Shown one piece after another: positions 16,136 through 50,525 of a stretch of DNA of 64,000 bases (the first letter of the stretch is position 1; each line of letters opens with the position of its first letter). The notes below the pieces were generated by a model that was given only the letters and a program-made list of their open reading frames with translations, ran no database searches and was not told where the DNA came from. The DNA is from Antedon bifida. Its lineage: Eukaryota; Echinodermata; Crinoidea; Comatulida; Antedonidae. Position numbers and translations under genes: made by a program. The stretch spans positions 12,591,001 to 12,655,000 of the forward strand of contig OY727095.1 of assembly GCA_963402885.1 (NCBI GenBank), read 5' to 3'.

Positions 16136-19100
16136 GAAAAGTGTCCATCAAAATACCAAAACAACCAAGTTCAGCAAAGACCAACCAATCAGAAACTAAG
16201 AGAGCTCATTGAATTTGATCGAATTCAACCAGATCTTTACTGACAATCCAGTTGAGTGGTACACATGTCGTCCAGCAGCAGCAGGCACACGGCCGTCTTA
16301 TTATCAACTATGACTTGTCAGCTAACTTCAATCCGTAACCTACTATTTGGTTGTCACCTGTGTTTACTCGTTGTGTTAACAACATCGAACGAGCGCGTAC
16401 ATCGTGGTCGCTTTTTCCAAGATTCGCGTTCGCATTATGAGTGGAACCCACAAGAAAATGTGGTCATATCTGACGCAAAGGCTAAGGTAATTTCATGTTT
16501 AAATGAAGTATTTCGAAAATTAAGAACAAATGGCAAGTACAATTGAGTGCGAATGGTACGTACACAGCTGAGTACAGTCACATCAAATTCAACGACTGAT
16601 AAACTGTGGTTTTGAAATATGCCCATATGTTTCTAAAACTTCAAATTTTTAAAATAATTCCAAGTAAAATAGAACTGTTGTTTTTTTTCTTTTCAGAAAT
16701 TTCTTCAAGAATTTGGTTACATGCAAAAATTCAACAGAAATTTACGAAAATGGGAGTTTACAGACTGGAAATATGACGGGCCAAAACCGTCAAACAAAGA
16801 TTCATATGATTATTTTTATAGTGAAAGTTATATTTATGAAGACTTGGGATCAGAAACTGAGTTAGAAAACACGATAGATCCAGAAAGCAGTAACAACCCA
16901 GAAGAACAGGTACTCTTTAAAGAGGCAGTCAAACGTTTTCAACAACAGAACAAGCTGCCAGTTTCTGGGCAAGTTGATGAACAGACAATGCAAATGTTTC
17001 TACGACCAAGGTGTGGTGTGCCAGATAATATGGGTAAATTTCTGATTAAAAAATCGGCAATAGAGAAAACAAAATCAGACAAACCAGTAATTCCAAGTTT
17101 ACGCCAAGTTCAAAGGTCGTCTGCGTCGCCTAGGACTATAGATTCAACTACGTCATCGTCTGCCGAATCACTAACTACTGTTTTTACCACGTATACAGAC
17201 ACTGCTACCGAAATGCCATCAACGACAAACACACCACCAGTGCGAAGAAAACGTTCGTCATCATTTTATGAGATTATTAAACGTAAAAAACGTTCACTGG
17301 GAAGTGATCATGATTTAACAATAGAGGCGAACACAATATTTCCCTCCAACGTTGTAAGCTGGAGAGTTTATTCCTCGTCTGAGAGTACCGGCATTATTGC
17401 AACCGATCCGGATGGCGTCCGTGATACTATGAAAGATGCTTTTCGAATGTGGGCTGAGATAACGCCGTTGATTTTTGTAGAAAACCTGTATGGGGATGTT
17501 TTGAATGTTGACATTGGGATAACTTTTACAAGTGGTATGCAAATAATTCTTTATTTAAATCTAAAAACTGTTTATAAAATTGTAACATGACGACAGGTCA
17601 AGATAACATAATTTTCATCTGGTTTCAGTTTAACTAAAATATCGAAATACATTCACTGGATGTTTATATGTTGCAGCATCCTTTCCCGTCTTCAACAGTC
17701 CCGTAGTCAGGGAGCGGGGTTTATGGTTCGGGCGAACCCCCTTTTAAGCGAACACCCCTTAACCGACTGCGAACCCTACCCCCGACATGCTCAATACCCT
17801 CACCTCATCTCTGAAAATCCTCCAAATGCGTACCCCAAATACAAGTGCCTGAAAGCCACCTCCCCCACCACCTTGACAGATCCTGGCTACGGCCCTGTTC
17901 AGAGGGAGTCGTATAAAAACGACCACAACATGGCGCGCATGTATAACAATTGGCACCTCACAGTGCCTATACTCATGTAATTGTCCAAACTCAGTCTATA
18001 TCACACGGCACAGATTTTATTAATTGAAATACGTTATTGTATCTTTCAGGTCCACATAGCGACGGCCATCCGTTTGCTCAGGATCATGATAGCTTAAATC
18101 CAACCGTATATTCGCACGTCATCGATACTGGTATACACTTTAACAACGACGTACATTTTACGATTGCTTCAAATCAAGGCATAAGTCTTCTGAAAACTGC
18201 AGTGCACGAGATAGGCCATGTATTGGGGTTGAATCATTCCGCAAACACACAGGCTATAATGTACCCTTATTATACATCATTCGATCAGAACAATTTTGAA
18301 TTGCACAGTTCAGATAGACAGGACATTCATGGAATATATTGTAAGATATTGTTATATATTTTAAGATTGCTATGTATTGTAAGATAGTTGTCGTATTCGA
18401 ATGGGAACTTTTTTGTCAAAGATTCGTTGAGTAATTTTTGTATTCGAATGGTAAATTTTAAACAGATTCTGCTCAACAGAAAGTCATTTGAATAGAAAAC
18501 GTTGGCAAGGCAAGCTTTAAGAACAATCTCAACTCTCAAAATACTCCGTTAATTCAACGGAAAAACTGTACTCAATGGTAAAAGTCCCAATCGAATACGA
18601 CAATTGTTATATTTTTTATTGTTGTTGATGAAATATAAGGACGATGATGATGGGCTGAGGTGTGATGATGGGCTGACGTGAATGAGTTATAGACAAATTG
18701 ATACTTTTTATTTGAATTAATTGTAAAACTTAATTTAAGTTACTAATATAAATGATTTATAAATAATACGTGATGATTTATTATAGCAAAATGCTCCGGT
18801 AGATTTGACAGCATTGTCGACTGGGTCCGGCCAAAGGCTGGTGGCACGTCACGTGTGTACACTACCTATTTCTTCAACGACAGCCTTTCTTGGATTTACG
18901 AGAACAAGTCAAATAAAACAAGAGATGGAGAACCGAGACCTACAAGTTCTCGCTGGCAAGGTGTCCCGAACAAAATTGATGCTGTTCTTCAAATACGCAA
19001 GGTGGACAGTACACTTTACTTTTTCTCGGGTATGTAGCGTTTTTGCCCTTTTTAATCATCAATAGTCTCATGACGCTTGACATGTATAGGCATGGCATTA

Positions 19101-20612
19101 AACATGGCAGTCAGCCGCGTCTTACATTTTGCGTACGCACAGAAACGTATCAGCATGTGCAAAAAGTATATTAGCCTTAAACTCTAGTTGTACCGCCTTA
19201 AAGGCAAATTTACACAGACAAGCGGTAACGGTAATACAAATATAGATTCTATATTATTCCTTATGACCATTTACACAAAGCGCGGAACGAACTGGCCGTT
19301 TCCGCTCAGGATAGATACATATTCTAAGTGGGACAAGCTACGCAGTTTTCCGCTTACCGTTACCGCTCGCCTCTGTGTAAATTGGGATTTAATAACAAAA
19401 AGTCTTCAATATTTTCCCGCCATCCTCCCTGACTTATTCAACAGATATAACATGGATGTAATAATCGAATTATGAGATAATTTAAATGTTTATTGTATTT
19501 TCTACTTTAGGAGCAAATGTCACTATATATTTCTATAACAATGTAAGCGCGTTAGTGAATCGAACTGTGGATTTTATCAACACAAGATTTCCTGGCATCC
19601 CAGACAACATAGACACTGCACACGTTGATAAAAAAGACAAAAATATATATTTCTTTAAAGGATCTCAAGTAAGTTTGTAGAATGCATTTATTTTATATTT
19701 TATTAATTAATCTTTCTACATAAAAATTACAAATACAGTTCAGCAGGGGTGTAAAGGAAACGCAAAAATAACTGTCACCTTGTAATGTACTTATACAGGC
19801 CCGTAGCCAGGGGGGTTTTATGGTTCGGGAAAACCCCCATTTACTGCGAACCCCCCTTAACCGACTGCGAACCCCCATCCCCGACATGCCCAATACCCTT
19901 AACTCACCTCACCCCCACAGTACAAAAGGTTATTCGTAAATTGAAAAATTCGTAAACTCGTTCGTGAATAACTCTAACTCTAACTTCTTCCCTATATGAG
20001 GGTACGTCGAGCGATACGTGTCTGTAAATTTCAAAGAGTAGCAAATGAATTGCCAATTTTCACCAGAAAAATAAAATACTTAGTGTCCGATCCTGGCTAT
20101 GACGGCCCTGTTATAAGCCTAGCTTCAGTTTGCAAACTCGAAGTTTGAAATAAATAAAAGTTTTCCAATGTTTACTATAGTTGACAAACTTCGGCAGTAA
20201 GTTAGACCGTGTTTAATTCCTAAAACAATACCAACAAAAAACGTTGAACTCTCTCTTTTTTTCCAATCCTTCTAGAGTCATGTCTGTTGTCATTTTCTTA
20301 TTCAATAAAGGTCTTTTTTTTAAATTGCAGGTATATGTATTTGATGTAAACTCACACAGTGTTGTGTCCGGATATCCAAAGCCAATAAATGACGTATATG
20401 CACCACGATTTCCAACGGTTAACGACGATCCACTCCCAAGTAATTTCGACGCAACGTATTATTCTCAAAAACATCGAACGTTATTTTTCTTCAAAGGAGA
20501 TCAATATTGGCGTATATCGTACCATCGTAAAAGCGTTAACGTGTTTGAACGAAAATTCACCCGTCCGCAAAATTGGAATACCTATTGGAATGATATCTGT
20601 GAAGTGGAATAA
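16136..20612 (+). CDS. MMP21: Matrix metalloproteinase 21-like secreted protease
   Basis: Coding exons: 16265-16486 (exon from acceptor 16136), 16697-17534, 18050-18340, 18787-19029, 19511-19668 and 20331-20612; 677 codons. Phases join cleanly. Start ATG 16265, or in-frame ATG 16310, which puts the hydrophobic signal segment (LLFGCHLCLLVVL) nearer the N-terminus. Domains: peptidoglycan-binding-like prodomain; cysteine switch PRCGVPD (Cys about 180); two furin-type sites, RRKRS (about 257-261) and KRKKRS (about 269-274); catalytic domain with zinc site HEIGHVLGLNH (406-416) and Met-turn AIMYPYY; hemopexin domain from Cys about 453 to Cys about 674 (ICEVE end). The stretches GISLLK-AVHEIGHVLGL and TYFF-S-W-YEN-N-TR match vertebrate MMP21 as I recall it. 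MMP21 acts in left-right patterning in vertebrates; the role here is unknown. Human MMP21 is about 569 residues; the excess lies in the Ser/Thr-rich prodomain linker. Confidence 0.93.
17695..17900. repeat. MITE family E, copy in MMP21 intron
   Basis: Inverted ends ACAGTCCCGTAGTCAGG and CCTGGCTACGGCCCTGTT flank a C-rich core (gaacccccttttaagcgaac). It lies in the intron between MMP21 coding exons 2 and 3 and creates a misleading + strand open frame there. Confidence 0.8.
19195..19391. repeat. MITE family G, copy 1
   Basis: Ends CCTTAAAGGCAAATTTACAC and GTGTAAATTGGGATTTAA are inverted. The interior carries GCGGTAACGGTAA and its complement. It is in the intron between MMP21 coding exons 4 and 5. 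Copy 2 (22148-22345) has the reverse orientation. Confidence 0.8.
19796..20112. repeat. MITE family E, second copy
   Basis: Begins ACAGGCCCGTAGCCAGG and ends CCTGGCTATGACGGCCCTGTT-like. The first half matches the 17695 copy. The second half differs (a segment around gttattcgtaaattg), so the interior has been replaced or extended. In the intron between MMP21 coding exons 5 and 6. Confidence 0.75.
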
Positions 20613-21514
20613 CCCACTGTTATTTTCAAAGAGTTATTTATACTTTAAACGAGCATTGTATGGAACGCCGTTCACGCAACAATTCAATCATAATCAATCA
20701 TCGACGTACCATAAACGTTTATAAATATATCATTCATATTGTGATAAATGTTTACTATAGTTAGTGTAAATGACTCTTTGAAAATGGATTATTTAACTTA
20801 ATAATCTGTGAATACATTCGTGTCCGTACGACGATTTTGTTTTATTTACAAATCTCTACGCTATACGTTTTTTTTGTGCAATTATATATATGTTTAATGA
20901 AACTAGCCCAACCCGTAAATGCAATATTGGTATCAGAAATTATTATTATTATTATTATTTTTCATTAGTTTACTGAATGTTTTACCGATGAAAAATGTAT
21001 CCCAATTAGACGCGCGCGCGTGCGTACGTGATTATAATTATACAACTCAACTGCATTTTTGTTGGTTCAGTAATTAAGATCATCTCTGTTTCCAGCAGTT
21101 AACATGTATTCAATATCTATACAATATGGCTTATAGGTTTATATTATTGGATTTAGACCATATACCAGGACCCTATATAAAATATCTTTAGTATTATAAC
21201 ATAGGCCTAATAATTGTTTATGTTTGTAAATAATTGAACTCAGGAAAATTGATAATACTGTAATTTATATATTTATTATAGAATTGGGTGCTACATATTG
21301 CGGTTTATTTTAACCGTGTTTTCTAGCACAATCACCGAATGTGCTATACAAAATATTGTATCATTAGAATACAACACATTGTGAAGAATGTGCGTATATT
21401 ATTGACTTGTTTATTCCAATGAAAATGTAAAGCTGCATTCACACGGTGGCGCCTTGTTAAATACTGGAAAATCATATATAGAATTGAATGGCGCCATTGT
21501 TACGTTTCTCCACC

Positions 21515-21655
21515 TAAAGCTTGGTTCCCACTATCACGCAACGCAAACTGGTTGACCAGTCACAAGCGACAGAATAATCTATCGCTTTTATTGGTCAATT
21601 CGCTTACGTTATGGCGTACGTGCTTGCGTTGCGTCCTAGTGGGAACAAAGCCTAA
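21515..21655. repeat. MITE family B, subfamily 2, full copy
   Basis: Starts TAAAGCTTGGTTCCCACTAT and ends CCTAGTGGGAACAAAGCCTA. The core contains the inverted pair TTGACCAGTCACAAGCGAC / TCGCTTTTATTGGTCAA. About 140 bp. Confidence 0.85.
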
Positions 21656-21904
21656 GTGTGAATGTAACTTTACGCATAGCTTTACGTATAAAATTATGTG
21701 CGCGTTTTATGACGTCAGCATACCAACGTGAAATCATAACGTTTATGATGTCACCGGGTGAATTATTGCTTTGTATTTTAAAAGAAAATCTATAAATATA
21801 TGTTCAACAAATTCCTAAACAATTGGAATACTATTAAACTATATAATGTAGAATACTTTAACCTGACTTCGGTTCTCTTGCTTACAATTCCGAAATATTA
21901 TACG

Positions 21905-21988
21905 AATAGTGCGTACTATTGCACGCCATGTGACCCATAACTATCCAATTAAATGACAGGAATTTATTTAGATGTTATATTATAATAA
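21905..21988 (-). repeat. Family H end fragment
   Basis: Read on the - strand: ATAACATCTAAATAAATTCC TGTCATTT... followed by a tgggtcacatg and tgcaatagtacgcacta segment, matching 31385-31470. Only one end is present. Confidence 0.7.
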
Positions 21989-22147
21989 AAATTAACGAAT
22001 ACGGTACTAAGCAAGTAGAATACGGAAATGAAATAGATATGTAAACGAACGCGATTTATATATCGCTTATCCATTTATCAGAGTTAATATTATTATTATT
22101 ATTGTTGTTGTTAAATATTGTTTTTGAAAGATTACTATTAGCCTACG

Positions 22148-22345
22148 TTAAGGCCAATTTACACAGACGAGCGGTAACGGTAAGCGGAAAACTGCGTAGC
22201 TTGTCCCACATAGAATCTGTATCTATCCTGAGCGGAAACCGCCCGTCCGCTTCGCGCCTTGTGTAAATGGTTATAAGGAATAACATAGATTCTAGGCCTA
22301 TATTATTATTACCGTTACCATTCGTCTGTGTAAATTGGTCTTTAG
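22148..22345. repeat. MITE family G, copy 2
   Basis: Ends TTAAGGCCAATTTACACAGA and TCTGTGTAAATTGGTCTTTA. The core (gcggaaaactgcgtagcttg, cctatattattattaccgtt) is the reverse complement of the copy at 19195. Confidence 0.85.
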
Positions 22346-22863
22346 GATGTTATACAAGACAAAAACGAATTTATCGTTGCATTCGTTTGCCGACTTATAG
22401 TTTACACATAAAATGCAATTATTATATTATTATTATTATTAGTCGATTGTTATCATAAAGAGTATTATTATAACGATCTTTTCCTATTTTAGGTAGCAAA
22501 TTAATTAAAAACTCCCCATAGTTCATTATAGCATTAAGTACGATAAACATTATGTGTTTTACACAATAACAAATAAATAAACTAATCATGATGAAACGCG
22601 TTTTATGTATAGTTTTAAATGTCTTTTTCATTTATAAATGTGATTATTGGTTTATTTATTTTCTTATTCAATGATCAGTATTATTATTATTAAAGAAATG
22701 TTTTTGTTGTAAATATTATAAATATTGTATGTATATTTGGATGGCACTATATATGCTAATAAATTGTATTTAAATAAATGTCACTGATGTGGTCTTGTGT
22801 GAAATGTAAAAATCGTCTGGAAATATGTTTCCTTTTACGCATAATTAAATTTTAAAGTTTCTG

Positions 22864-23330
22864 TACTACAGTATATAGTACTGTACATGTATATCATCGA
22901 AAATTCAAAATTTTTGAAAAAAAATTGGAAAAAATCACTGTACTATAGTACAGGGATTTTTTTCCAAAAAATGGCAAAAATTCGCACTTTTTAAAATACT
23001 ATTATTATGCAATAATATTGCTATATGCGCATATATTGCGTTATCATCATCTTATAGATGATATACGTATAGTAACCATTTATGTAAAAAAATAAAATGG
23101 TCGAAATTTTACCATTTTTCGAGAAAAAAAATCCCTGTACTATAGTACAGGGATTTTTTTTGAATGGCCAAAATACGCACTTTTTAAAATACTGTTATTA
23201 TGCAATGATATTGCTATATATGCGCATATATTGCGTTATCATCCTCTTATAGACGTATAGTAACCATTTGTCAAAAAATTATAGTTTAAAAAGCAATTTT
23301 TCGAAAAAAATCCATGTACTATAGTACTGG
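22864..23330. repeat. Tandem units bounded by CTGTACTATAGTACAG palindromes
   Basis: Positions 23124-23161 are a perfect 38-nt palindrome, A8-T-CCCTGTACTATAGTACAGGG-A-T8. Variants lie at about 22936 and 23312, giving a period of roughly 180-195 bp. The DNA between them is a direct duplication (cgcactttttaaaatact, atatgcgcatatattgcgtt, tagtaaccattt shared). Another variant is at 24082-24124. Strong cruciform or hairpin potential; no coding capacity. Confidence 0.85.
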
Positions 23331-23774
23331 CCATCTTTGTGTCCAACTATGCCTATGTAGAGTATGGAGTCGAGTCATTTGCTTAAAAATGTATAACATT
23401 CACAAGGTTTCTAATTAAAATATCAATTTGTTTAAAGGTTTTTGTTAAGATAATAACGCAATCATAAAGTTACTGCGAAGATGATTTTAAACAACAAAAT
23501 GCAAAAACAATGCATTACTATAGAGAATCGCTGTACAAAATAAACGTAGAGCGTGCATGGAGCGCACAGCCAGAGCCGTTAAATTAAATGGATTAAAGCT
23601 ATTTTTGTTAAAATCATCAAAATAATGTTATTATTATTTTTTTTTAAACCTTTAAACAAATTGATTGTTTTGATATTAAATTTGATAGTTAAAGCCTTTT
23701 GAATGTCATACATTTTTAAAACAAAGGACTCAACTCCATACTTTACATAGTAATAGTTTTACACAAAAATGGCT
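23329..23774. mobile_element. Foldback element with arms over 100 bp
   Basis: The left arm (about 23329-23443, starting ggccatctttgtgtccaac) is the imperfect reverse complement of the right arm (about 23645-23774, ending tttacacaaaaatggc). Matching blocks include tatgga-tcgagtc / gactcaactccata and caatttgtttaaaggttt / aaacctttaaacaaattg. The 200-bp centre has no open frame of note. The element abuts the palindrome array. Confidence 0.8.
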
Positions 23775-23951
23775 TCAATCCATTCAAAGTCGCAAATCTT
23801 TATGGCTCTGGGTTTGTTGATGTACTACGCATGCGCATGTGCGTGTGAACGGATTGTATAATTAGGGCGTTTTAACGCCGTATTAGAGCGTTATAACGCC
23901 GTATTATTATAAAATATTTTTTTTCTTTGGCGGAAACCAGCCACCGTAGTT

Positions 23952-24041
23952 TACTATATCATAATGTGACATGCGCAGAATCATTTAATGTGGTCTGAGA
24001 ATTGACAAAACTGATTACTATATCATAATGTGACATGCGCA
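23952..24041 (+). repeat. Direct repeat, 26-nt unit twice
   Basis: The segment TACTATATCATAATGTGACA TGCGCA occurs at 23952 and again at 24016, with a 64-nt offset. The intervening sequence is not shared beyond this. Confidence 0.75.
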
Positions 24042-24167
24042 CCTTAAAACATATTTTTTTAAATAAAAAAGAGAAAAAACAATCCCTGTAACTATTGTAC
24101 AGCATGTAGTATAGTACAGGGATTAACAAAAAATGACGAAATATCTACCCTTTTATGTTGACTTGTT

Positions 24168-24440
24168 AAGCCTAGTTCTCATTAGGACGCAACGCAAAGA
24201 CGTAAGCCGAAACCGCAACGTAAAGCTTGGTTCTCACTAGCAACGCAACGTAACGCAACCTACGCAACGTAAGAAAATTCCCTTCCAATAATTGTTTTTG
24301 CCGCCTGCGTGAAATCAAACCTGTTGCATCGTCGGTTCTCACTTGTGATACAGCACTTTGCGTCGATACGTCGCTGCGTTACGTTGCGTTGTGTTCTAGT
24401 GGGAACCACGTTTTAGCGAATTGACCAATCACAAGCGGAC
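24168..24440. repeat. Nested family B copies
   Basis: An outer B copy (taagcctagttctcattaggacgc ... aattgaccaatcacaagcg) is interrupted at 24223-24414 by a complete inner copy (TAAAGCTTGGTTCTCACTAG ... CTAGTGGGAACCACGTTTTA). This shows that the inner type moved after the outer one had settled. Confidence 0.75.
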
Positions 24441-24758
24441 AGTTCAAATATTTGTTTTAATGTGTGGCGACTCAAATGACCCAACAAGATGCGTACACAT
24501 ACTCAACAGACCTACCAGATCATAATAATTGAATTCTGAACAGTTCAACGGAAACAGTACTGTAGGTATACAAAGTTTATCTCCAGAAAAAGTAGTAAGG
24601 TTGCTCCCTAATATTTTGCGAACCTCAAGACAGTCACAATTTCCAGGTATATTTGCGGTCTAGAATTAAACTGTATTTGATTCAATCCTTGTTTAGCTCT
24701 ACTTTTATGACGTTCCCACACATTTGAACTTGTTGTCTCGTGTAATATCTGGTCAAAG

Positions 24759-27700
24759 CTATGACAGAATACAACAGCAACTTTGTCCGTGAGCCTGGTA
24801 AACAGAAAAAAACAAAGAATTAGTACAGTTCAATCTCTCAATCAAGTGAATTTTTAAGCTTGGTTCCCATTAAGACGCAACATAGGGACGTAAGCGCAAC
24901 GTAAAGCTTGGTTCCCACTAGCACAAAACACAAGGACGTCTGTCGCAAAAACGCAAGCGATGTATTATTCGAACCGTTCCTTGTGATGTGATGTGACGTG
25001 TACGTCCTTGCGTAGTCTGAGTTCCAGACGGAGTTTTGTTTTAATATTAGTAAAAAGATAAATATTTTGGCACATATGGCGTTTCATACGTATACTACTT
25101 GCGTTTGGATTTTCAGACAAAAAGTGAAATAAAAACAAATAAATAAAAAAAAGACAATGAATACAGACTTGGAGCAAGTCTAGTCCTTGCGTTTCGTGCT
25201 AGTGGGAACCAAGCTTAAGTAACTTGACCTTACCATAATCATTACCAACAATGTCCAAGACATGCGACCATTAAAAACATTAATTTTAACGTTGTTTCTA
25301 ATTGGAAACATTATTTATATTTATGCTCTATGAGTGTAACATTCTTAATTTGTTTAATAGATTTAAATAAATTAAATAAAGGTTACACAACTTACCACTT
25401 TATTTTCATATTTGTTGATATTATTATCTAAATGATCTTGTTCTACGGTTGGTATTGCAGCTGGTGGTTCACGTGCTTCTTGTGAATTAGTTAAACGATT
25501 TGTATCGACGTCAGACTATTAATAACAAAAAAAAAACCAATATTTTGTCAATCTATGGGGACTGTAACCAACAAGGCGCATATTCTACCACTAATGTAAT
25601 TATTTGCTGTACTGAAAGAATAGGATCTACACTACCACTGCAGCAGTTTAGACAGTTAGGCAAAAACGTTATAAATTACTCCTAGGCCTATTGACGTAGG
25701 TGCAACGCAAGTAAGTCGACCAATCACAAGCGACAAGCGATCTATGGCGCCGTGATTGGTCAAATTACGTGTGACGTGCGCTTTGGGACAATTTTTTGAT
25801 TGTATAAGCGCTTTATAAAGAACAACATTACATTACGTACGTATGTCCTTGCGTTGCGTCTAAAAGTGGGAACCTATTAAATAGCACCAATTATTTGAAG
25901 GCGCCATGGTAATGAGCGCCAAAACGTTTATTTTCTTAATATTTTAAAAATAATAATAAGTTGTTTTTTGCATACCTGTTTGGCATCATCAATTTTATTC
26001 GTCTCTTTTACTACTGTGCGTTTGAGTTGTTGACCTTTGATCCTTTTGACTACGTCATACATCCCTCTTTGCGTAGCTAGTTCAAGTGCCGTGTATGACA
26101 CCACCAAGACATCATCCGATTCTGGGTTCAACCTCTCCCATTCCTTTTTTTGAAAATAAGTCATATACAATTATTATACAATGTTTAGGCTGTGCTTTTA
26201 TGCAAGATCTCAAGCTCTGTCTACTGTGTTTATGTACAACAGCATACACACACATTATGCATGATGTATTAACTTATTCTACTCCAGTAGAACCTCTATT
26301 AAGGGGACAACTTCGGGACTCAACAAGTGTCTTGTGTGTCAATGAATATGGGTTTGCCATAGTGTTAAAATATATATTGCTCACGTTCATTTTTATTTTG
26401 TTTTCGTTCTGTGCTTTTGTTATTTGTTTTCTATGACAATACTGTAACGTACGATGAGAGTCAATAAAGAATTCAACATTGAACATTTCATTTTTAATAG
26501 GCGTGTCATCTGAGCTGAATAGGGGTCACAAAGGAGGGGTTATGTTGTATTGTATGAGGAGGTAAGTATGGAGGAAACAAAATCCTGTAAATGTAGGCCT
26601 ACAATAAATTACCTGATGTTGAAATGCAACATCTATATTTTCTTGAACGAGTAACTCGGCTACATCTGAATGGTTGAGTTTGATAGCGATCATTAAAAGT
26701 GTGAATGCTAAACATCCTGGTGTCTTCTCGCCATATAAATTCTACATTTTGAATAATTTACAATAGTCAGTAAGGGTCTGTAAATCCGTTTCTCACACGG
26801 CATTGTGTCTAGAGACAACAAAACGAGGCTAAAGCGTGGTTCCCACTAGCGACGCAACGCAAGGACGTAACGCAACGCAAGTGAATTGACCAATCACAAG
26901 CGATGGCTTATTCGCTTGTGATTGCTAACTGTCTATAACTTCGCTTGTCATTGGTTAAAACGCTTGCGTTGCGTTTACGTCCTTGCGTTACGTTCTAGTG
27001 GGAACCAAGCTTTATTGGGAAGCCAGAGCACAGACCATTGACCCAAACAGTACTGGTGGCTTACCACAAAACGTTGGCATAACGTATTTGGCAATAGTGT
27101 ATAAGTGGGAGAAAGATTGTAGTCAGGAGACACTAAGAAACTACTTCGCAGTTTATTGTCTCGAGATATAGCACCGTATGAGAAGCAACTTGAGTAAGAA
27201 CTTCCAAGATATGCGCATGTTATTAAATAGTCAATTAGAGTAGAACACCATAAAGCTTGGTTTCCACTAGCGACGCAACGTAACGACGTATTGATGCAAA
27301 GTGCTGTATTGCGTAATCACAATAAGTGTGGTTCCCACTAGGACGCAACGTAACGCAACGCAAAAACGTATTGACGCAAAGTGATGTTTTGCGTAATCAC
27401 AAGTGGGAACCGACGACACAACAGTGCTGCAAAAATCGCAGGTTTGATTTCACGCAGGCGGGGGCAAACACAATTATTGGAAGGGCATTTTCTTACGTTG
27501 CATAGGTTGCGTTACGTTGCGTCGCTAGTGGGAAGCAAGCTTTATGGGAACCAAGCTTTATGGGAACCAAGCTTTAGGGGACCAAAGGGTGTCACAAAGA
27601 AAGGTTCAATACTGTATCAATTTTGCTTACCACTTTCATGTTAATATCAGCGTCAATATGAGAAATGAGTTGTTTTGTTCTGGTTACACTTCCATCGGAA

Positions 27701-30057
27701 ACAGCTGCGAACAATTGCTGTAAATAAAAAAGTAAAAATATGTTCTGAGCAGCAAATTGGGATTGGCTTTCGATCAAATCAGTTTGGGAAATTAGGTTTT
27801 TATCAAAACCAGTGGCTATGGGCGCTCACTGGCCAAACCTAGGGGCTCCAGAGCTTATGGGGGGCCTCTGGGCAGTGCCCAGGGGCAAAAATATGTCGAC
27901 AAAGGCGAAAAACACCCGAGGCCTCCAGCGTTTGAGTGCTACTTAGGGTTCCTAATCCAGGGGCCTCAGGTCTCTGCGTTACGCCACTCAAACCGTAATA
28001 AATAAACTGGCTTGCAAATAAAAATGAACTTACCATTGAAATTGGAAGTCTACGGTCTATCATGTCTACGACATCGTTTAACCCATTCTCAATAGCTAAA
28101 TCTCGAGCGGACTGCTTTCCATTAACACACTGTTACCAAATATCACAAAAATAAACGTAATAACAAAAGACATGGGTAAATGAATTAAAGACATGAGTAA
28201 ATGAATTAAATAGATCATGCTAAATAAATAATACAACAAACCCAGCATTTATGGTTGATGTCAATCCCTCTATCGATGAGTAGGGCTGATATATCCGTCT
28301 CCAATGCATCAATGGCCAACATCAGAAAGTTTCGGTAAAGAGATTTGGCTACCATGTTTCCGCCCTATTTGGTAAAAATGTTACGTCATCATTACCATCT
28401 GTCGTAGGCTTACTTTTCTATCATTATCATCACAACTATAGTATTTTCATCATTGTTTACATTACCACCAATGACGCACTTAAAATCATAGTTTTTACAT
28501 ACTGAGCCTGGGTTCGGTACTGTAATACTTGTGTTACGTTACGTTTTTCGTCCACACACGTACGTTTTGCACGAAATCCGGAATGGCGCGTTAAGCGTGG
28601 TTCCCACTAGAACGCAACGCAGCGACGTATCAACGCAAAGTGACGTATTGTGTAATCACAAGTGGGAACCGACGACGTAATAGTGCTGCAAACATCGCTG
28701 GTTTGATTTCACGCAGGCGGGAGCAAACACAATGTTTGGAAGGGCATTTTCTTACGTTGCGTAGGTTGCGTTACGTTGCGTCGCTAGTGGGAACCAAGCT
28801 AAAAGCGTGGTTCCTACTAGCGACCCAACACAACGACGTATTGACGCAAAATGATGTATTGCGTAATCACAAGTGGGAACCGACGACGCTGTAGTGAAAC
28901 ATCGAGGTTTGATTTCACGCAGGAGGCGAGGGAAAGCATAAATATTTTCATTTTCTTACGTTGCGTAAGCGTGATTCCCACTAGAACGCAACGCAGCGCA
29001 GCGACGTATCGACGCAAAGTGTTGTAGTGCGTATTCACAAGTGGGAACCGACGACGCAACATTGCTGTAAAAATCGCAGGTTTGATTTCACGCAGGCGGG
29101 GGCAAACACAATTATCGGAAGGGCATTTTCTTACGTTGCGTCGCTAGTGGGAACCAAGCTTCACGTTGCGTAGGTTGCGTTACGTTGCGTCGCTAGTGGG
29201 AACTAAGCTTAAGTGTGAACGCTTGCATTCTTAAAGCTTGGTTCTCACTTGCGACGCAACGTAACGCAATCTACGCAACGTAAGAAAATGCCCTTCCAAT
29301 CATTGTGTTTGCCCCCGCCTGCGTGAAATCAAACCTGCGATTTTTACAGCAATGTTGCGTCGTCGGTTCCCACTTGCGATTACGCAATACATCACTTTGC
29401 GTCGATACGTCATTACGTTGCGTCCTAGTGGGAACCACGCTTTAATACTACACATTTTTTATCCGATCACTGGATCGGTATCCCGATTAAGTGTGAAGGT
29501 ATCCGTAAAATGGATGCGGCTTGTCATGGCGTGGTACCGTAGTAAGCTGTATGGATATACCAATGTTCTATATTAATATTACGAATTTTCTCAATTAGAA
29601 ACTCCGTTATAAACTTCGTTTTGGAGAAAGGGGTCCATCCAGAAATATCATGCATATACCTAGGCCTACCTCATCTGCATTGATGAACTCTTCATTATCA
29701 TCAAGAATCGTCTCTACGTCATGTCTCCTACCGTGTTGAATTGCATTGCACATTTCCTAAGACAAACATCGTAAAATCGTAGGCTATTTTAGAAATATAT
29801 ATATATTTAATTAAATTGTATAGTGGTCGATTCATATTATATTCGGGTTTACACAAATCAAGCACAGTGCAGCAGAAATCAAGCGTAAACGAATTGATTG
29901 ATGGAGTGATCTCCGGGTTTTGTAACCCGTTGTAAAACAGAAAAGAGAAAATAACGTTATTGCAAGACTAAGGCATGTAAAGCACACTTACCCGAATAAT
30001 CTCCCTCTGTCCGGCTGGGCTTATATTTGTCATTCCTACGGCATTGTTGACGTTAGA
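24759..30057 (-). CDS. Ankyrin-repeat protein with C-terminal CaaX box
   Basis: Nine coding exons, all phase 0: 29992-30057, 29670-29756, 28242-28364, 28034-28129, 27631-27717, 26613-26741, 25976-26143, 25396-25515, 24759-24794. The likely start is ATG 30033-30031, giving about 295 residues. Ankyrin-like helices are visible: LAIDALETDISALLIDRGID, ARDLAIENGLNDVVDMI, LFAAVSDGSVTRTKQLISHI, LLMIAIKLNHSDVAELLVQ and TALELATQRGMYDVVKRI. A polar tail follows (exon 25396-25515), then a last exon of 11 codons, AHGQSCCCILS-stop. CILS fits the CaaX rule for farnesylation (X = Ser), with adjacent Cys for palmitoylation, so membrane anchoring is inferred. The last exon is accepted because phase is kept. 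No named orthologue recognised. Its introns are packed with MITEs; more 5' exons are possible (a donor at 30283/30282 is a candidate). Confidence 0.78.
24857..25217. repeat. Nested family B copies in the ankyrin gene
   Basis: Two left termini (24857 TTAAGCTTGGTTCCCAT and 24912 TAAAGCTTGGTTCCCACTAG) precede one clear right terminus (GTGCTAGTGGGAACCAAGCTTAA at about 25195-25217). Lies in the last intron of the ankyrin gene. Confidence 0.75.
25692..25882. repeat. MITE family B, subfamily 2
   Basis: The core shows CGACCAATCACAAGCGACAA and GTGATTGGTCAAATTACG as inverted arms, with CTTGCGTTGCGTCTAAAAGTGGGAACC-like sequence at the right end. The left terminus is eroded. Confidence 0.65.
26280..26335 (+). 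repeat. Family K fragment
   Basis: Carries CAGTAGAACCTCTATTAAGG GGACA, the start of the family that also appears next to the PGM3 minisatellite (39466-39506) and at 61756-61925. Confidence 0.6.
26830..27014. repeat. MITE family B, subfamily 2, full copy
   Basis: TAAAGCGTGGTTCCCACTAG at the left, CTAGTGGGAACCAAGCTTTA at the right, about 185 bp. The interior has TTGACCAATCACAAGCGATG and two inverted partners (TCGCTTGTGATTG, TCGCTTGTCATTGG). Confidence 0.85.
27252..27573. repeat. Family B, nested subfamily 1 copies
   Basis: An outer copy starting TAAAGCTTGGTTTCCACTAG is followed 70 nt later by a second left terminus (GTGTGGTTCCCACTAGGACG). The right end shows three successive GGGAACCAAGCTTTA-type termini, as if ends had been duplicated. 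Confidence 0.75.
27810..27989. repeat. Family D element
   Basis: CAGTGGCTATGGGCGCTCACTGGC at the left and GCGTTACGCCACT at the right form short inverted ends around a conserved core (cccaggggc..., gaggcctccagcgtt). About 180 bp; lies in the ankyrin gene's intron between exons 28034-28129 and 27631-27717. Confidence 0.8.
28591..29442. repeat. Cluster of four family B subfamily 1 copies
   Basis: Copies at about 28591-28800, 28803-28970, 28971-29213 and 29234-29442; the last is inverted. Each shares the core TTTGATTTCACGCAGGCGGG and ends in GGTTCCCACTAG-type termini. The third carries an internal duplication of its right end (cgctagtgggaaccaagcttcacg...). They fill the intron between ankyrin exons 29670-29756 and 28242-28364. 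Confidence 0.85.
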
Positions 30058-35800: not shown

Positions 35801-38800
35801 AAATTTTCAATTTTAATGTCACATAATAGTAATTCACTTTGATCAAAAACTGTCCCTAAAAAAAAGGTTTCTTTTGTCTTTTTGTAAGTGAAATAATTAT
35901 TTTTGTTGATTTTTTGTATACAGAAGTGAATAACTTTATTCAAACTGCAAAATGGCCTATTCAAATGCTGATCTTATTAATATTTATTTTTCAGGTTTTT
36001 GGGGGGAAACATCTTTAAACCATTGTGAATGTTTCTTATTCTTGTTTCACTTACTGTACCATGTCCATTTGCCTCAAAGTACACACCAATATCAAAGTCT
36101 AGTGCTTTCAAGTGAAGATGCTTAACTCCTGTTTTAGCACAAGCTACTGGAACTTTCTACATTAAGATCAAATTGTGTGCAGTTTGTTAACATACATCAT
36201 TGGGTTTAACCTAGGCTATAACTATAAAGCTCTGTCTACACTATTAAACTAGTTTGACAAAAGAAGTGTGATGTGCCCAAATATGGTAGTGATATGCTTA
36301 AATATGGTAGTGATATGACATCATCATGTACATATATGGGCACATCACATTAAAAAAAAAAAGTTTGATAGAGTATACAGAGCTTTAGAGAGCGTTCAAT
36401 TTGCGACGCCCGACTACCTAACTAGGTCAGGTCAATTGATGTGTCGTTGGTATGCAAGGTACAAGGACACACATCCTAATATCCTTGCATGTGCGCAATG
36501 AACTAACATGACATAGTTTGGTCGTCACAAAGCAAAATCTCCACAATATCCATTTGCAGTTGGTTGGTTCTATCTTTTTTTCACAGATAAAACAAAGAAA
36601 GACAATGGGAACATTATTGTGGGAAAAACTAGAATGAGATTTACCATTACAGTTGAGGCATAGTAAGTGGAACTGCCATTAGCATAGGCAGTTTGTACAA
36701 GGCCTAGCTGGAGATTCAAACCAACAGATGCTATAAGCTCTTTCAAATATCCAGCAATCTAACAAACAAAAGCAAAACAATTGTAAAAAAAAACAATCAA
36801 ACTTAACATAACTGCACACACATTAACTATGTAGAGTGCCTGAAGCTACTTCCGTAACTATCATTTTTAAGTGAAAGTCAATGTCCTCCTTAGAGCTGGC
36901 AAATCACTTTCACAGGACAAACACAAGATCTACATAATAAGGTTTTTAAATACAGTTTTGAGAGTGGAGTTGAACATGTAGTGAGAATTTGAACCCATGA
37001 CTTCTAAGGTATCAGTGGCCAAGCATCCAAATTAGGTTCTAAATTTATTTAATAGCTAATTTTTAAATATACAAAAGAATAAAAATGTTGCTTACTAATG
37101 TTGCTATCTTGTCTCCATCCATCAATTGAAAACTTCCATCTAAAAAAGAAATTATAAAATTAAAATTTTTATGGTTTTGGAGGAATTGAAAATATTTAAA
37201 GATGTATTGTCCCCCTGAAAACATAATTCTTACAATTTTTTTTTGAATATGCCATTTTAATGTCACATAATAGTTATCCACTTTAACCAAAAATTGGATC
37301 AAAAAAAAAAATGTTTACCTGAAAAGCAAAAAATAGTTGCATTTAACCATTTATTTTGTCATTTTAAAAGTGAAAACACCTTTTTTTTTCTATAGAAGAT
37401 TCTATTAAAACTATAAAATAACGTATTCAAAGTCTGATTTAATTAATCTTCATTTTTCATGTTTTTGGGGGACAATACATCTTTAATGAAAACTTAACAC
37501 AATAAAAAAAACTGTCATGTTTTGTTTACCTTTTGACTTGAAAAAATAAACAATTCTGTCTGCATCGCCATCAAAACTACAATACTTCTTACCCACCTCA
37601 AACGTCACCCCTGTTAGAAACATTAAAAAAACACACACAATAACAACATTTATATTTTAAAATAATTAAAATAAACATGCATAAATAATTCCTGCCCATT
37701 CACATTATGCGAGCATGTAGAGTTGTGTCAGTTACTTTCACACATGTGTGCGTCTAGTCCTGCTACCATACAAAACAGATTTGTAGTGTAATAAAGTATT
37801 TATATTTTATTTATATATTTATCTAACTCTACAAATGGTATTGAGCACTGTAACGAGACAATCTAGTAATCTCTTATACTCATACTTACTAACATTATCA
37901 GTACAGCATTGAAAATAGATCAATAAAGAAACAAGAAATCCCATTTATAGAGTTCTGCGGTGCTGACGTAATGACGGTAGGTGGCGCCGTTTCGTAGCTA
38001 GAAAACGTTCAACCTGCCTGAGTGACTCCAAGGTCACCAATGGTTTGGAATAGGCTTATTGAAGTAGTCATTTATTTGTTTTTAATAATCTATTTATTCT
38101 TCAACTAGGCCTACAGTTTAAGTTAAAAAAAATAAAGCTAAGATACATAGTTTTTGATAGAAATACAGATCTATAGTTTATCAACATAGTAGCGTTGAAC
38201 GCATTTTTGGTTGCGCTAGCACAACCACGCAGCGCCATCTATCATTGTGACGTCACTCCATAGAACTTTATAGAAATTACCTGCTGGTGGTTTCTGTCCA
38301 ACTTTGACATAGTCTGCTCCACACTGAAAAAAACCATTAATTAATATAGATATCAAATATTGTACAGACTAGCATTCTCATTGCAGTTTCAATACTTGGA
38401 AAATCTTGCAAAAAATTTGGCAATTATATTCTCAATTTGGAGAAAAATTGTTTGTGTTCTTGGATTTTAATTTTTCATTAATTTGAAAAGATTTTTACCT
38501 GTTCATTGAGCTTTCCTGTCGATCCATCATTGAACACCTTCATATCAAGGTATCCTTTAAGCTCTTTCTGAAGCTGTAACACCTTGAGGGCGCCGACACC
38601 ATTAGCTCCATCTACAGATATTTCTGGCAAATAGGAATTGTCACCAGGTGTCTGCAGAAAAATGTTGGTAATATCCGATTAGTTTATTAAATGTAAATTT
38701 TCAACATCATGGTATCGTATAGAGATTTGTTTTTATCTCATTTTAAAATGAGATGGCTGCAAATATGCAAATTAATATTTAAGGGGACACTGAACGTGAG

Positions 38801-41800
38801 GCATTATATGTTTTAACACTACAGCAAACCCCTATTCAGGGGACACTGAACGTGAGGCAGTATATGTTTTAACACTACAGCAAATCCCTATTTAGGGGAC
38901 ACTGAACGTGAGGCAGTATATGTTTTAACACTACAGCAAATCCCTATTTAGGGGACACTGAACGTGAGGCAGTATATGTTTTAACACTACAGCCAATCCC
39001 TATTTAGGGGACACTGAACGTGAGGCATTATATGTTTTAACACTACAGCAAATCCCTATTCAGGGGACACTCCTGTTCAAGGGACACTGAACGTGATGAA
39101 GTATATGTTATGACACTACAGCCAATCCCTATTCAGGGGACACTCCTGTTCAGGGGACACTGAACGTGATGAAGTATATGTTTTAACACTACAGCAAATC
39201 CCTATTTAGGGGACACCCCTATTTAGGCGACACTGAACGTGAGGCAGTATATGTTTTAACACTACAGCAAATCCCTATTTAGGGGACACTGAACGTGAGG
39301 CAGTATATGTTTAAACACTACAGCAAATCCCTATTCAGGGGACACTGAACGTGAGGCAGTATATGTTTAAACACTACAGCCAATCCCTATTCAGGGGACA
39401 CTGAACGTGAGGCAGTATATGTTTTAACACTACAGCAAATCCCTATTCAGGGGATACCCCTATTTTGGGTCTCAATGGTGTCCCTTCAATAGAGGTTCTA
39501 CTGTATACCTGTAACTTAAGTTGTGTAAAAGCTTGGCTTAGTTTCTTGTAGTATCCTTCTTCAGTAGCCTCTCCATACTGTCCATTAGTATTCACACATC
39601 TAACGAGGTAATGTAACTGAGGAGTCGTCAACATTCCTATGAAAACAGAATCACATTTTGTTAATGATTTAAATCTGTCCTGGTTTGTTTCTTTGTGTGT
39701 ATGTGTATACTGTATCTCCAGTTTAAAGACATATTCTACCACAATAACAATGGCCAAGAAGTGCCAATATTATGAATATGGTTTGTAGTGCTCTGCCTAA
39801 GCTGCTCAACCACTTTACTTATTTAGTATTTATTATATAACGCCTAAATAAATTCCTGTCATTTGATTGGATGACTGTTGGTCACAATAGTATACAAATA
39901 ATTGATGTTTATGAGTGTAATAGTACAATTAATGTCATGAGGTGAATGATGAAAAGTTATATTTCACCTCATTATTTGTACACTATTAAGTAGTTACCTA
40001 CCATAATCAGTGTAGACTGCATTAAAAGCTTTAATAGCGTCAATAACTGATGCGGATAAACTTGGACTGCTGGGTCTAATCGAATGAAAAACAAAAATAA
40101 ATTTTATCCAGACTAAGTTAACTAAATGAAAGGTTAATACACATTGGGCATTGCTTATTTAGAGGAATGAACAAGCTTTGGCTTCGAGACGGCAGAACAG
40201 ATGGTACTTTACCAGTGGTGTAACGGCTATGAGTGCTCACTGGTTAAACCCAGGGGCCCCTGAGCTTGTGGGGGCCTCTGAGCAGTGCCCAGAGGAAATA
40301 ACAGGCATTAAAATATGTCGAAAAAGGCTAAAACGTCTGAGGCCTCCGGCGTTGGAGGGTCACTTAGGGTTCCCAAACCAGGGGCATCAGATCTCTATGT
40401 TATGCCACTGTACTTCAACTGACCGTGATGAGTGGAACATGTATTCAGTTCATGTTACTGTTTGTTTGATTTTTGTTTGTTTCATTTATTTATTTTCCAC
40501 ACATTGAACAAAAGGAACAGATATATATACTATATAAAAAGACAAAGACAATGTGTGAAAGGAGATCAAAATAAGTAAAAATTACTTTAAGCATCTACCG
40601 TCTCCGAACAAAGCTTACTATGACATTTTAAATAAAGTTAGTTATTAAGAGATTAGAGTTATAAAGGATTAAATCACATTTGGTAAAAATTACCAATTGG
40701 GTGGCTGTAGTTGAGGGAACTATAAATACAGCATGTAGTTTGAGGAGAGGGTATACTTTGATCAGCTGTCAAAAATCAATGACATGTGGTAAGAAAGATC
40801 TTTTGTTTTTTGGTAACAACAACAGCTGTAGTGACATCACAAAACTACATGTAAAATGAATATTGCAATTTAATCATTATTTTTAATAAAATCATACCTT
40901 GTGTCTCGTGCTATGATGACATTCGCTGAAACTGCCATGTCAATGTTGTTATCTTTTATAATACCCTCAATTACACCTTCTAACTCCTCATTGCTGTTTA
41001 TATAAAGTAAAAGTGATTATGATCTCAGTTACTGTTATAACTTAGGCCTCACATTTTGCATGAGAGTGCGATCACTCGCCTAACATAAAAAATGCCTTTG
41101 TGGTGTGCTATTAACATCATGCTTAAATATGATAAACTTCTACACACCAAGATACAAACGGCACACCAGAATGTGGAGGAGTGCAATTTGTAGCACAACT
41201 GCAAAGGCTGATAAGTATGTTCATTTGCAATAAACTAAATTAGCTATTAAAATTGGCCAGAAGATTCACCTTGCATTAGCCAGTTGTGTTGCATAAACCT
41301 CCCATTCAGCAATCAGCATCTCCCCCATTGGTTCAACAATTTTAACACCATTGTCACACTCAGGATTGTGTGAAGCCGTAATCATTACTCCAATGCTAGC
41401 TAATAAGGAAAGCAAAGATATTTTAAAGTACATGATAAATGGGATGTAATAGATAAATGGGATAGATGAATGGAATAGATAGATAAATGGGATATGGATG
41501 GGGTGGATGGATGGATGAGATGGATAAATGGGATAGATGGGGATGGGTGGATGGGATGGATAAATGGAATAGATGAGGGTGGGTGGATGGGATATATGGG
41601 GGTGGGTGAATGGGATAGATGGGGGTGGGTGGATGGTATAGATGGGATGGGTAGATGGGATGGATGAATGGGATAGATAAATGGGATAGATGGGGTGGAT
41701 TGGTTGGTGAATGGGATAGATGGGGTGGGTGGGTTTGACAGATAAGATAGATGGGGTGGGGGTTGATCTGACAGATGGGGTGGATTAATGGGGTGGGATA

Positions 41801-48000: not shown

Positions 48001-49138
48001 AGAAGTACAAAACAAATTTTACACATAAAAAAAAAATCTAAGCAGAGTTATATAATGAGTAAAGATTTGCTTTATATATAGTTTATATCATTTTTATCAA
48101 TAGAGAGGTCCCACTTTTGCGTTGGACAGTGTGCACAGTTTTCAATAAATAAATTAATAAATAAGCACAAAACAAGTGTATATTTCAGCTGAGTGATTTA
48201 CATCCTGTTTTGATGAAATATTTTTTAATACTGTACAGTATATAATAAATACAGTAATAAAATAATATTGTAGCATTGCTTACCTGTAGTGTCTAAATGA
48301 ATATAATATTCAAATTCTTTGGCTAACGTATCATCACTCGCAAATGCACAAATACACGCGTAAAAATGTACACATCTCCTACGCTGGTCCTCACCTCCAA
48401 CCAAATTCTTAAAGAAGTTCTTAAATGGTTTGCACATGCACTGAAATCGATGCTCAGTGACTCCGCTCTTTTTATGAGTACATGAGGTGAACGAAAAATG
48501 TAAGAAGCCAAGTGGCTGCTTAGGATTTGGTTTACATTTAACTACCATTACGTTTTTAGTAACACGCTGAACAAGTGGGCCAGTGGTCTCTGTCGCCAGC
48601 AGCCATATAGCCTGCTTTATTTCGTTAGATACTGGTAATGCATTCAAAACCGAGTTCTTAAGAGTCAGCGGTGAAGCCTCGGCTTCACAGTCCAATGCTA
48701 AGCGTATATGAGGACATGGAGGAGGCAGTGTATGCAACTGGTTTATCATGATAGGAGGCTTAGGACACGTCTCGACAAAACAACGAGCACTCTGTGCAAC
48801 TAGGTTATTCCAGGCTTCTAGATTATGAGCCTGCCCTGCTAATTCCTGTTTTAACGGCAACTGCACAAACCCTCTGTAGTCTGGACCACGATCACGTAGA
48901 CGAACAGAAAATACTTGAACTGTTGAGCCAGTAATGACTTTAACCGCATCAGCACTGTGTCCACTCTTGCGTCCACTCCCCTTTAATGTCATATTACAGG
49001 CTTTATTCTTGCAGCTCAATCCTCTTATTCCATTGTATGTACCACAGTTTGGACATTTCTTTACCCCTCTTAAGGTAGGTCGTCCTAAATCCTTGAACAA
49101 GTCAGATTTTTTATCCATGACTCTTCTTTTTACTGCAC
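45036..49138 (-). CDS. C2orf42: C2orf42 homologue, zinc-ribbon protein of unknown role
   Basis: Coding exons: 48284-49118 (exon from acceptor 49138), 47889-47996, 47165-47377, 46773-46981, 46057-46219, 45036-45205. Total 1698 nt, 565 residues (human about 574), all phases consistent. Start ATG 49118-49116. The N-terminus holds a treble-clef or ribbon-type zinc motif, [21 protein letters not shown] (Cys 22, 25, 36, 41), closely matching the human N-terminus I recall. The C-terminal half is strongly conserved ([51 protein letters not shown]). A variable acidic-to-basic linker ([13 protein letters not shown]) separates the two and could act as a nuclear signal. No biochemical function is established for the family. 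A MITE abuts the donor of exon 46057-46219. Confidence 0.95.
45524..45904. repeat. MITE family F, copy 2
   Basis: Left end AGAGTTCTGCGGTGCTGACG, right end GACGTCACACTGCAGAACTCT; about 381 bp. Longer than copy 1 because of an extra AT-rich segment at about 45655-45715. In the last C2orf42 intron. Confidence 0.88.
45920..46049 (-). repeat. MITE family A, lacking one end
   Basis: The core (gtgtgatgtgcccaaatatgg twice, catcatcatgtc) and right end (GTGTAGACAGAGCATTA) are present; the left terminus is missing. It directly follows the F copy and stops about 8 nt from the splice donor of C2orf42 exon 46057-46219. Confidence 0.8.
47106..47160. repeat. Family H end fragment
   Basis: TATCACCTAAATAGATTCCC GTCATTTGATCAATTGTGAG TCACATG matches the left end of 31385-32068. 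It abuts the donor side of C2orf42 exon 47165-47377. Confidence 0.6.
47602..47780 (+). repeat. tRNA-derived SINE relic (family M)
   Basis: Consensus A-box TAGTCGAGTGG and perfect B-box GGTTCGAATCC lie about 60 nt apart, then TTTAGAGGGTTAGGTTT as at 42605. The acceptor stem does not pair well, so it is not called a tRNA gene. Confidence 0.6.
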
Positions 49139-50525
49139 CTGATTAAGACAAAAAAATCCCCCACAAACATGGTAATCGTATCATCAGCATGTCATTTGTC
49201 AACAATTTGAATGTATCATATTATTTATTTGTTTATTGTTGGCTTAGACTAGAGTATAGGTTTAGAATATACTGCTATATTATTATGTGGGCCTAAAATT
49301 ATTGCTATCTGCAACTACTCAGAGCCATATATATAAAGAGTTACGACATTGAAAATTAGAAGCCATTTTTGTGTCAAAAAATTCGCACGCTGAGGGCGCG
49401 CGCGTCTCTTTTGTATAGCGTTTTCCTATAGTTCATGCATTATTTTTAGATTTTTTTGTCTATGAAATAACGCTTATATTCCGTTTTTATTTTAGTAATT
49501 AATTTTATTAATGGTATTAATTTGGTAGCATACATATATTGTGTCTATAATAACAAAAGAATAAATGCTAGGGCCTACATGCAAGTCAGGATACATCAAA
49601 GCATGAACCAATACAAAAAACACACAAATTCACCCCTCTTTTTATACAGTATATGGCTCTCTGTGTGTTTTTGACACAAACTTTCAGAGACTCGTTCATC
49701 ATTTCATTTGTAATAATTTGCCTTTATTATTTTAATATTGTTCATACCCTATTCAATATATTAACAAATATATCCACGACACTTTATTATTTTATTTAGT
49801 CATCAAAGCATGCATTATAAATTGAAAATATTACATAATTGTTATTAATAGGACGTAGTTATGGGATGTTTCGTTCCAAAATCAATCAATCGAACTTTAT
49901 AATGTACTAGCGCACGCGCGCGCAATATTCTTTGCCGCAAGTACTTCTGTACGCTGTGCACATTGATATTTCACCGTAAAATGTGCAATTACATTTTTTT
50001 AAATATAAGAAAAAGTTTAAAGTATTTTCTTGCTCCTATACTTTACATGCATTAACGGAGACAAGTTTGACACAAATTGATCTGCATATCACGTGACTAT
50101 AATCCAATGTCGTAACTCTTTATATATATGGCTCTGCAACTACTAAAGCTAGGGCGCCCCCTAGGCCTAATAAGAAATAATGTATTAATAAAAATAAAAT
50201 TTTTATTTTAAATTGAGCGATTCATAAATGTATTGATAATAATAATAATATCATAAGCCTATATATATCAGGTATAACATTAGCCTAGTAATAATGTAAT
50301 CATTTAAATCACAAAATCTACCTACTATAGGCCTAGACTTCGCTAACTATCCACGTTAACATCTATACCGGCGAGGATGAATATTCCTGGGAACAACTTG
50401 CTTTTAAGCACTGTACTGCTGCTTGCCTAGGCCTAGCCTCGCATCACACAAAAAAGCGGATAGACCCACACGTTTGTATTGGGTTTTATTATAATGTAAT
50501 TACACATATTTTCATGAATTCTTAC

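What the first reader, a model, noticed from the sequence alone, without database searches (positions are those of the whole stretch)
24759..30057. Ankyrin-repeat protein ending in a CaaX box on its own mini-exon
The last exon adds only AHGQSCCCILS. CILS fits farnesyl CaaX rules, and two more Cys precede it for palmitoylation. The lipid anchor sits on a separate 11-codon exon, and the preceding exon would read through to a stop (VVSCVTFI) if the intron were retained. That offers a possible soluble versus membrane-bound switch by splicing. I know no named ankyrin orthologue with this layout.
Basis: partly seen in the sequence, partly recalled or inferred. Interest (0 to 1): 0.75.

Follow-up and report, generated by a model that had tools for sequence, protein, structure and literature searches.

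The report
Conserved lipid-anchored ankyrin protein of echinoderms
A feather-star gene encodes a small ankyrin-repeat protein whose tail carries a membrane-anchoring lipid signal that relatives in sea urchins, a brittle star and acorn worms also keep, although nothing yet shows that splicing switches the anchor off.

Summary
The nine-exon gene is real; its last exon (24759-24794, minus strand) encodes AHGQSCCCILS-stop, and a 92%-identical Antedon mediterranea protein ends in the same CCCILS. The lipid signal is not chance. Of 11 family members with a C-terminus, the window included, 10 end in C-a-a-X; they come from crinoids, echinoids, an ophiuroid and hemichordates. The roughly 60-residue linker before it is only 3-18% identical to the window in the six more distant main-clade orthologues, against 41-54% in the ankyrin part. 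All 8 main-clade CaaX members also have Cys at -6. X varies (S/T, L or F), so the anchor is kept while the predicted prenyl type changes. Best reading: an uncharacterised family of membrane-tethered ankyrin scaffolds.

The splicing switch is not supported. All 8 introns, not only the last, give an early in-frame stop if retained, and the mini-exon acceptor scored best of 114 by a simple score. One Anneissia isoform without the box is the main hint for it; no transcripts could be read. Prenylated ankyrin proteins are already known (TIMAP, MYPT3), so this is a new member of a known kind.

The parts
29992..30033 (-). exon 1 (coding part), MTNISPAGQREIIR
   Evidence: agrees with P0001
29670..29756 (-). 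exon 2, ankyrin domain begins
28242..28364 (-). exon 3, ankyrin; donor GTTTGT
28034..28129 (-). exon 4, ankyrin
27631..27717 (-). exon 5, ankyrin
26613..26741 (-). exon 6, ankyrin (holds the Pfam PF00023 stretch, residues 158-183); the conserved HQEW straddles the exon 6/7 junction
25976..26143 (-). exon 7, rest of the predicted hairpin, last repeat and long helix
25396..25515 (-). exon 8, part of the linker predicted to be disordered
24759..24794 (-). exon 9, AHGQSCCCILS stop: CaaX box (Cys292) with Cys290 and Cys291 before it
24795..25395 (-). intron 8; if retained, adds VSCVTFI then stop
24456..24461 (-). ATTAAA hexamer about 300 nt downstream of the stop, possible poly(A) signal
   Evidence: motif match only

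Best explanation
The gene encodes a small membrane-tethered ankyrin-repeat scaffold of an uncharacterised family found in echinoderms and hemichordates. SHOWN by sequence: an ankyrin domain, a fast-evolving linker, and a conserved C-x-C-a-a-X ending. PREDICTED: the ankyrin solenoid of about 240 residues carries two extended beta-hairpins, and the linker is disordered. INFERRED: protein farnesyltransferase modifies Cys292, the last three residues are removed and the new end is methylated, and Cys290 and/or Cys291 are S-acylated as the second membrane signal, as in H-Ras and N-Ras. The linker then holds the ankyrin surface at the inner face of a membrane, where it recruits a partner. In the ophiuroid and main-clade hemichordate relatives (X = L) the prenyl group would be geranylgeranyl. 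The second hemichordate clade, which lacks the Cys at -6, may rely on nearby basic residues instead.
For: Exact gene model. Pfam Ank_2 E = 5.9e-11. Ten of 11 members with a C-terminus, window included, end in C-a-a-X. Cys at -6 in 8 of 8 main-clade CaaX members and 0 of 2 in the second clade. Ankyrin part 41-54% identical to the window in six main-clade orthologues, linker 3-18%, yet the box persists. AlphaFold on P0001: blocks up to residue 230 average 72-97, residues 240-305 and 307-309 below 50. The two clades separate at 100/100. CaaX enzymology and the Ras second-signal rules are recalled knowledge.
Against: No prenylation was measured and no predictor was available; many proteins fit CaaX rules without being prenylated (recalled). 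P0002 (Anneissia isoform X2) lacks the box. No starfish or sea cucumber relative was returned, so presence throughout echinoderms is not shown. The last six residues match the window in only 2 of 6 positions in P0003 and P0008, so the pattern rather than the letters is kept. The basic-residue idea is weak: Lys+Arg in the 20 residues before the last four are 8 and 4 in the second clade, but also 5, 4 and 5 in main-clade P0006, P0007 and P0008, and 1-3 in the crinoid and echinoid CaaX members. No binding partner is indicated; structure matches listed are generic ankyrin or DARPin chains.
Confidence: 0.8

Rival explanations
1. The lipid anchor is switched by RNA processing: intron 8 retention (or use of a poly(A) site within it, or another last exon) makes a soluble form, splicing to exon 9 a membrane form.
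For: Intron 8 is the last intron, so a retained form would have no downstream junction and could escape decay (inference). Two ATTAAA hexamers lie in intron 8, against 1.02 expected on shuffling. P0002, labelled isoform X2 in Anneissia, ends without a box. P0004 and P0005 are labelled isoform X1 and P0007 isoform X2, so other isoforms are annotated whose ends I could not see. OAS1 p42/p46, whose choice is set by an A/G SNP, is a real case of forms with and without a CaaX (PMC6950736, passages).
Against: All 8 introns give early stops if retained. The exon 9 acceptor scores far best. P0002's ending has no convincing counterpart between 21000 and 25600 of the window: best tblastn match E = 0.15 on the wrong strand, next E = 0.22 on the right strand at 25141-25170, inside intron 8 but T-rich and 6 of 10 residues. 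P0001, from the closest species, carries the box and shows no isoform label. No transcripts could be read.
Confidence: 0.12
2. The CaaX ending is accidental, a neutral C-terminus on an ordinary ankyrin protein.
For: Chance for one protein is not tiny: 1.7% by tail shuffle for the window protein.
Against: 9 of 10 other members, in two clades, keep it next to a linker that has lost most identity.
Confidence: 0.04
3. It is a TIMAP/MYPT3-type targeting subunit of protein phosphatase 1.
For: Ankyrin repeats plus a terminal prenylation box, as in TIMAP and MYPT3 (PMC6737228, passages).
Against: No KVxF-like and no MyPhoNE-like motif in 11 of 11 members by simple patterns, though P0002 and P0008 lack the N-terminal part where the motif would lie. 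No MYPT chain among the three PDB sequence matches at E up to 1.
Confidence: 0.03

Closest known systems
TIMAP (PPP1R16B) and MYPT3 (PPP1R16A)
   Same: Ankyrin repeats and a CAAX box at the extreme C-terminus that gives prenylation and membrane association (PMC6737228, passages).
   Different: No KVxF or MyPhoNE motif found in this family; no MYPT chain among sequence matches in the PDB.
Legionella AnkB effector
   Same: Ankyrin repeats with a C-terminal CaaX farnesylated by the host (PMC5506055, passages).
   Different: AnkB has an F-box (PMC5506055, passages); Pfam finds none here to E = 1. Bacterial; nothing here shows homology beyond the repeat type.
OAS1 p46 and CDC42 E6/E7 isoforms
   Same: C-terminal lipid signal that differs between isoforms; CDC42 E6 and E7 differ in the last 10 residues (PMC6411841, PMC6950736, passages).
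   Different: There alternative forms are documented; here one terminal exon is found and no transcripts were read.
H-Ras/N-Ras and K-Ras4B tails (recalled)
   Same: Prenyl Cys plus a second signal: nearby Cys in the main clade, perhaps basic residues in the second clade.
   Different: Attached to an ankyrin domain, not a GTPase; the basic-residue contrast between the clades is weak.

Membership tests
CaaX-box (prenylated) proteins | Cys at -4 with aliphatic a2 and a permitted X at the very C-terminus | tested here: met
   CILS; 10 of 11 members, window included
CaaX-box (prenylated) proteins | Covalent prenyl group on that Cys | not testable with these tools
   needs metabolic labelling or mass spectrometry
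Ankyrin-repeat proteins | Ankyrin repeats above the curated cut-off | tested here: met
   Ank_2 43.2 bits against cut-off 27.3; ankyrin fold matches for the P0001 model
TIMAP/MYPT (PP1 targeting subunits) | KVxF PP1 docking motif before the ankyrin repeats | tested here: not met
   pattern [KR][VI].[FW] absent in 11 of 11 members; P0002 and P0008 lack the N-terminal part
TIMAP/MYPT (PP1 targeting subunits) | MyPhoNE motif (RAQQLKKW) | tested here: not met
   loose pattern R[AST]Q.L absent in 11 of 11, same two without the N-terminal part
Legionella AnkB-like F-box ankyrin proteins | F-box domain | tested here: not met
   no F-box in Pfam scan of the window protein to E = 1
Genes with an isoform-controlled CaaX box (OAS1, CDC42 type) | Two transcript forms with and without (or with different) lipid-signal ends | tested here: inconclusive
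   one strong terminal acceptor by a simple score; one Anneissia isoform without box; no RNA data

The most novel reading that the evidence does not exclude
An ancient ambulacrarian family of lipid-anchored ankyrin scaffolds whose terminal mini-exon acts as a module: anchoring is kept across the descendants while the lipid type (farnesyl or geranylgeranyl) and the second signal (acylated Cys or basic residues) are exchanged, and at least in crinoids the module can be left out by alternative 3' ends to make a soluble form.
Probability: 0.12. Interest if true: 0.6.

Novelty: new member of a known kind. Interest (0 to 1): 0.36.

Why it matters
It gives a concrete membrane-anchoring prediction for a gene annotated only as 'uncharacterized protein' in several echinoderms and hemichordates, and one that can be tested in sea urchin embryos. 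It also offers a natural series in which a CaaX box is kept while its X residue and the residues before it change.

Tried and rejected
Chance CaaX: rejected by conservation. TIMAP/MYPT membership: rejected on motifs. F-box ankyrin: rejected. A sub-threshold Pfam match to a PARP14 KH domain (18.1 bits, cut-off 27) was set aside. Anneissia's box-less ending was looked for in window 21000-25600: weak matches only, the best on the right strand a T-rich stretch in intron 8 (E = 0.22). Structure search for a specific partner or function: the 50 rows shown are DARPins, ankyrin-repeat chains and engineered repeat proteins. Poly(A) hexamers in introns: 0-2 per intron against 0.10-1.40 expected. A second-clade copy and a prenyltransferase subunit in the crinoid genome could not be searched. 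Literature: no paper in the held library mentions the four locus numbers tried; none holds 'ankyrin repeat', 'CaaX' and 'sea urchin' together; of 81 papers with 3 of 4 terms, the 20 listed show no title on this family; none of the 8 papers listed of 834 mentions CILS. PMC9478949 (G6PD5) looked like a precedent in the listing, but its passages show N-terminal splice variants, so it was dropped.

Rows dropped before the 10-of-11 count: P0012 (Saccoglossus, 142-aa fragment without the C-terminal part) and P0010, P0013-P0024 (13 generic ankyrin proteins from the profile searches; I read P0010 and P0013 of these, and neither ends in a CaaX). One search scored only the 7994 candidates sharing most words and did not relist P0004, P0006, P0007 and P0008, so its list is not complete. 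The 11 are not independent: window and P0001 are near identical, three are urchins, and four are hemichordate proteins in two clades. P0002 was left out of the tree and of the regional identities.

Full report
What was checked. The minus-strand model was rebuilt from the DNA. It has nine coding exons from 30033 down to 24759, with GT-AG introns in phase 0, giving 295 residues. Exon 9 is 36 nt and encodes AHGQSCCCILS and a stop. The acceptor before it (ctttgtttttttctgtttaccag) is the best of 114 AG sites between 25395 and 22600 by a simple pyrimidine score of my own (11.3, next 7.3). An ATTAAA hexamer lies about 300 nt past the stop. The window sits in a 315.6-Mb assembly, where the A. mediterranea protein has seven matches, to exons 2-8 of this gene; the tool notes that its counts are lower bounds.

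Relatives. A search of public proteins found six relatives of the spliced protein at E up to 0.01: Antedon mediterranea (92% identity over 100% of the query), Anneissia japonica, Diadema antillarum, Strongylocentrotus purpuratus, Lytechinus pictus and the hemichordate Glandiceps talaboti. Profile searches added Ptychodera flava, Amphiura filiformis, a second hemichordate clade (Glandiceps P0009, Ptychodera P0011) and a Saccoglossus fragment. The window therefore probably comes from an Antedon-like crinoid (inference from the match; class names are recalled). No starfish or sea cucumber protein was returned; whether it is lost or missed is unknown.

The ending. Of 11 members with a C-terminus (window included), 10 end in C-a-a-X: CCCILS (window and A. 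mediterranea), CTCVIT, CCCIIS, CSCLIS, CTCTLL, CTCVLL, CPCVIL, and SCVIF twice. The exception is Anneissia isoform X2 (P0002), which is also shorter at its N-terminus. All 8 main-clade CaaX members have Cys at -6; neither second-clade member does. The second clade has 8 and 4 Lys+Arg in the 20 residues before the last four, but main-clade P0006, P0007 and P0008 have 5, 4 and 5, so basic residues do not cleanly replace the Cys. By CaaX rules (recalled) S/T points to farnesyl and L or F mainly to geranylgeranyl. Shuffling each protein's last 60 residues gives C-x-a-X in 0.5-2% of cases for the ten that have it. These are related sequences, so the point is retention, not independent origin. In the six main-clade orthologues other than A. 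mediterranea (P0003-P0008), the ankyrin part is 41-54% identical to the window and the linker 3-18%; A. mediterranea has 98% and 75%. A tree of 10 members (P0002 left out) separates the two clades at 100/100; the Amphiura branch is long and its place unsure.

Structure. AlphaFold on the A. mediterranea orthologue with the nine-sequence alignment gives an ankyrin solenoid with 10-residue blocks averaging 72-97 up to residue 230, and strand pairs at 82-91 and 186-206, the latter holding the conserved HQEW stretch. Residues 240-305 and 307-309 are below 50. PDB matches listed are DARPins and general ankyrin chains, so they say fold, not function.

The switch. That stop exists, but all 8 introns give an in-frame stop after 7 to 64 codons, so it carries little information. 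In favour: being the last intron, its retention would leave no later junction (inference); one Anneissia isoform lacks the box; several relatives carry isoform labels whose sister forms I could not see; and a T-rich stretch inside intron 8 (25141-25170) weakly resembles the Anneissia ending (E = 0.22). Against: one dominant acceptor, no isoform label on P0001, and intronic ATTAAA count 2 against 1.02 expected. A retained form would end in CVTFI; FTase accepts some pentapeptides (PMC11121372, abstract), so 'soluble' would itself need proof. I put the switch at about 12%.

Mechanism, with status. Shown: domain order, conserved ending, divergent linker. Predicted: solenoid with hairpins, disordered linker. 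Inferred: farnesylation of Cys292, processing, S-acylation of Cys290/291, and presentation of the ankyrin surface at a membrane to recruit a partner. The partner is unknown.

Comparison. Working like: TIMAP and MYPT3, ankyrin proteins held at membranes by a prenylated CAAX (PMC6737228, passages). Membership: not met, as the PP1 docking motifs are absent by simple patterns (two of the 11 members lack the N-terminal part). Legionella AnkB has an F-box (PMC5506055, passages), not found here. OAS1 p42/p46 and CDC42 E6/E7 (PMC6950736, PMC6411841, passages) show that isoform control of C-terminal lipid signals is known. In the held library, no paper mentions the four locus numbers tried and none combines 'ankyrin repeat', 'CaaX' and 'sea urchin', so the family appears undescribed within those searches.

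Verdict. Observation confirmed; lipid anchor well supported by conservation; splicing switch unproven. It is a new member of a known kind, of modest interest.

Noticed in passing
24230-29435 (also 10672, 21524, 21636): A dense family of repeats around GTTCCCACTAG: 24 matches in the window with up to 1 mismatch against 0.58 expected, 19 of them in introns 2, 5 and 8 of this gene and in both orientations; looks like a small inverted-repeat mobile element.
   Followed up: partly
38660-39576: A repeat array with 56-bp spacing.
   Followed up: no
16673-20612: Plus-strand matrix metalloproteinase-like exons: peptidoglycan-binding-like domain, matrixin, hemopexin.
   Followed up: partly
58646-59773: Minus-strand open frame with RanBP2-type zinc fingers and an ankyrin ubiquitin-binding domain; TRABID/ZRANB1-like by recall.
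   Followed up: partly
48225-49142 and 41266-41784: Minus-strand open frames with zf-tcix (C2orf42-like by recall) and a phosphoglucomutase domain I piece (PGM3-like by recall).
   Followed up: partly
window protein against P0001, exon 8: A. mediterranea has 14 extra residues in the linker that look like a tandem duplication around EAREL-IPTVEQ.
   Followed up: no
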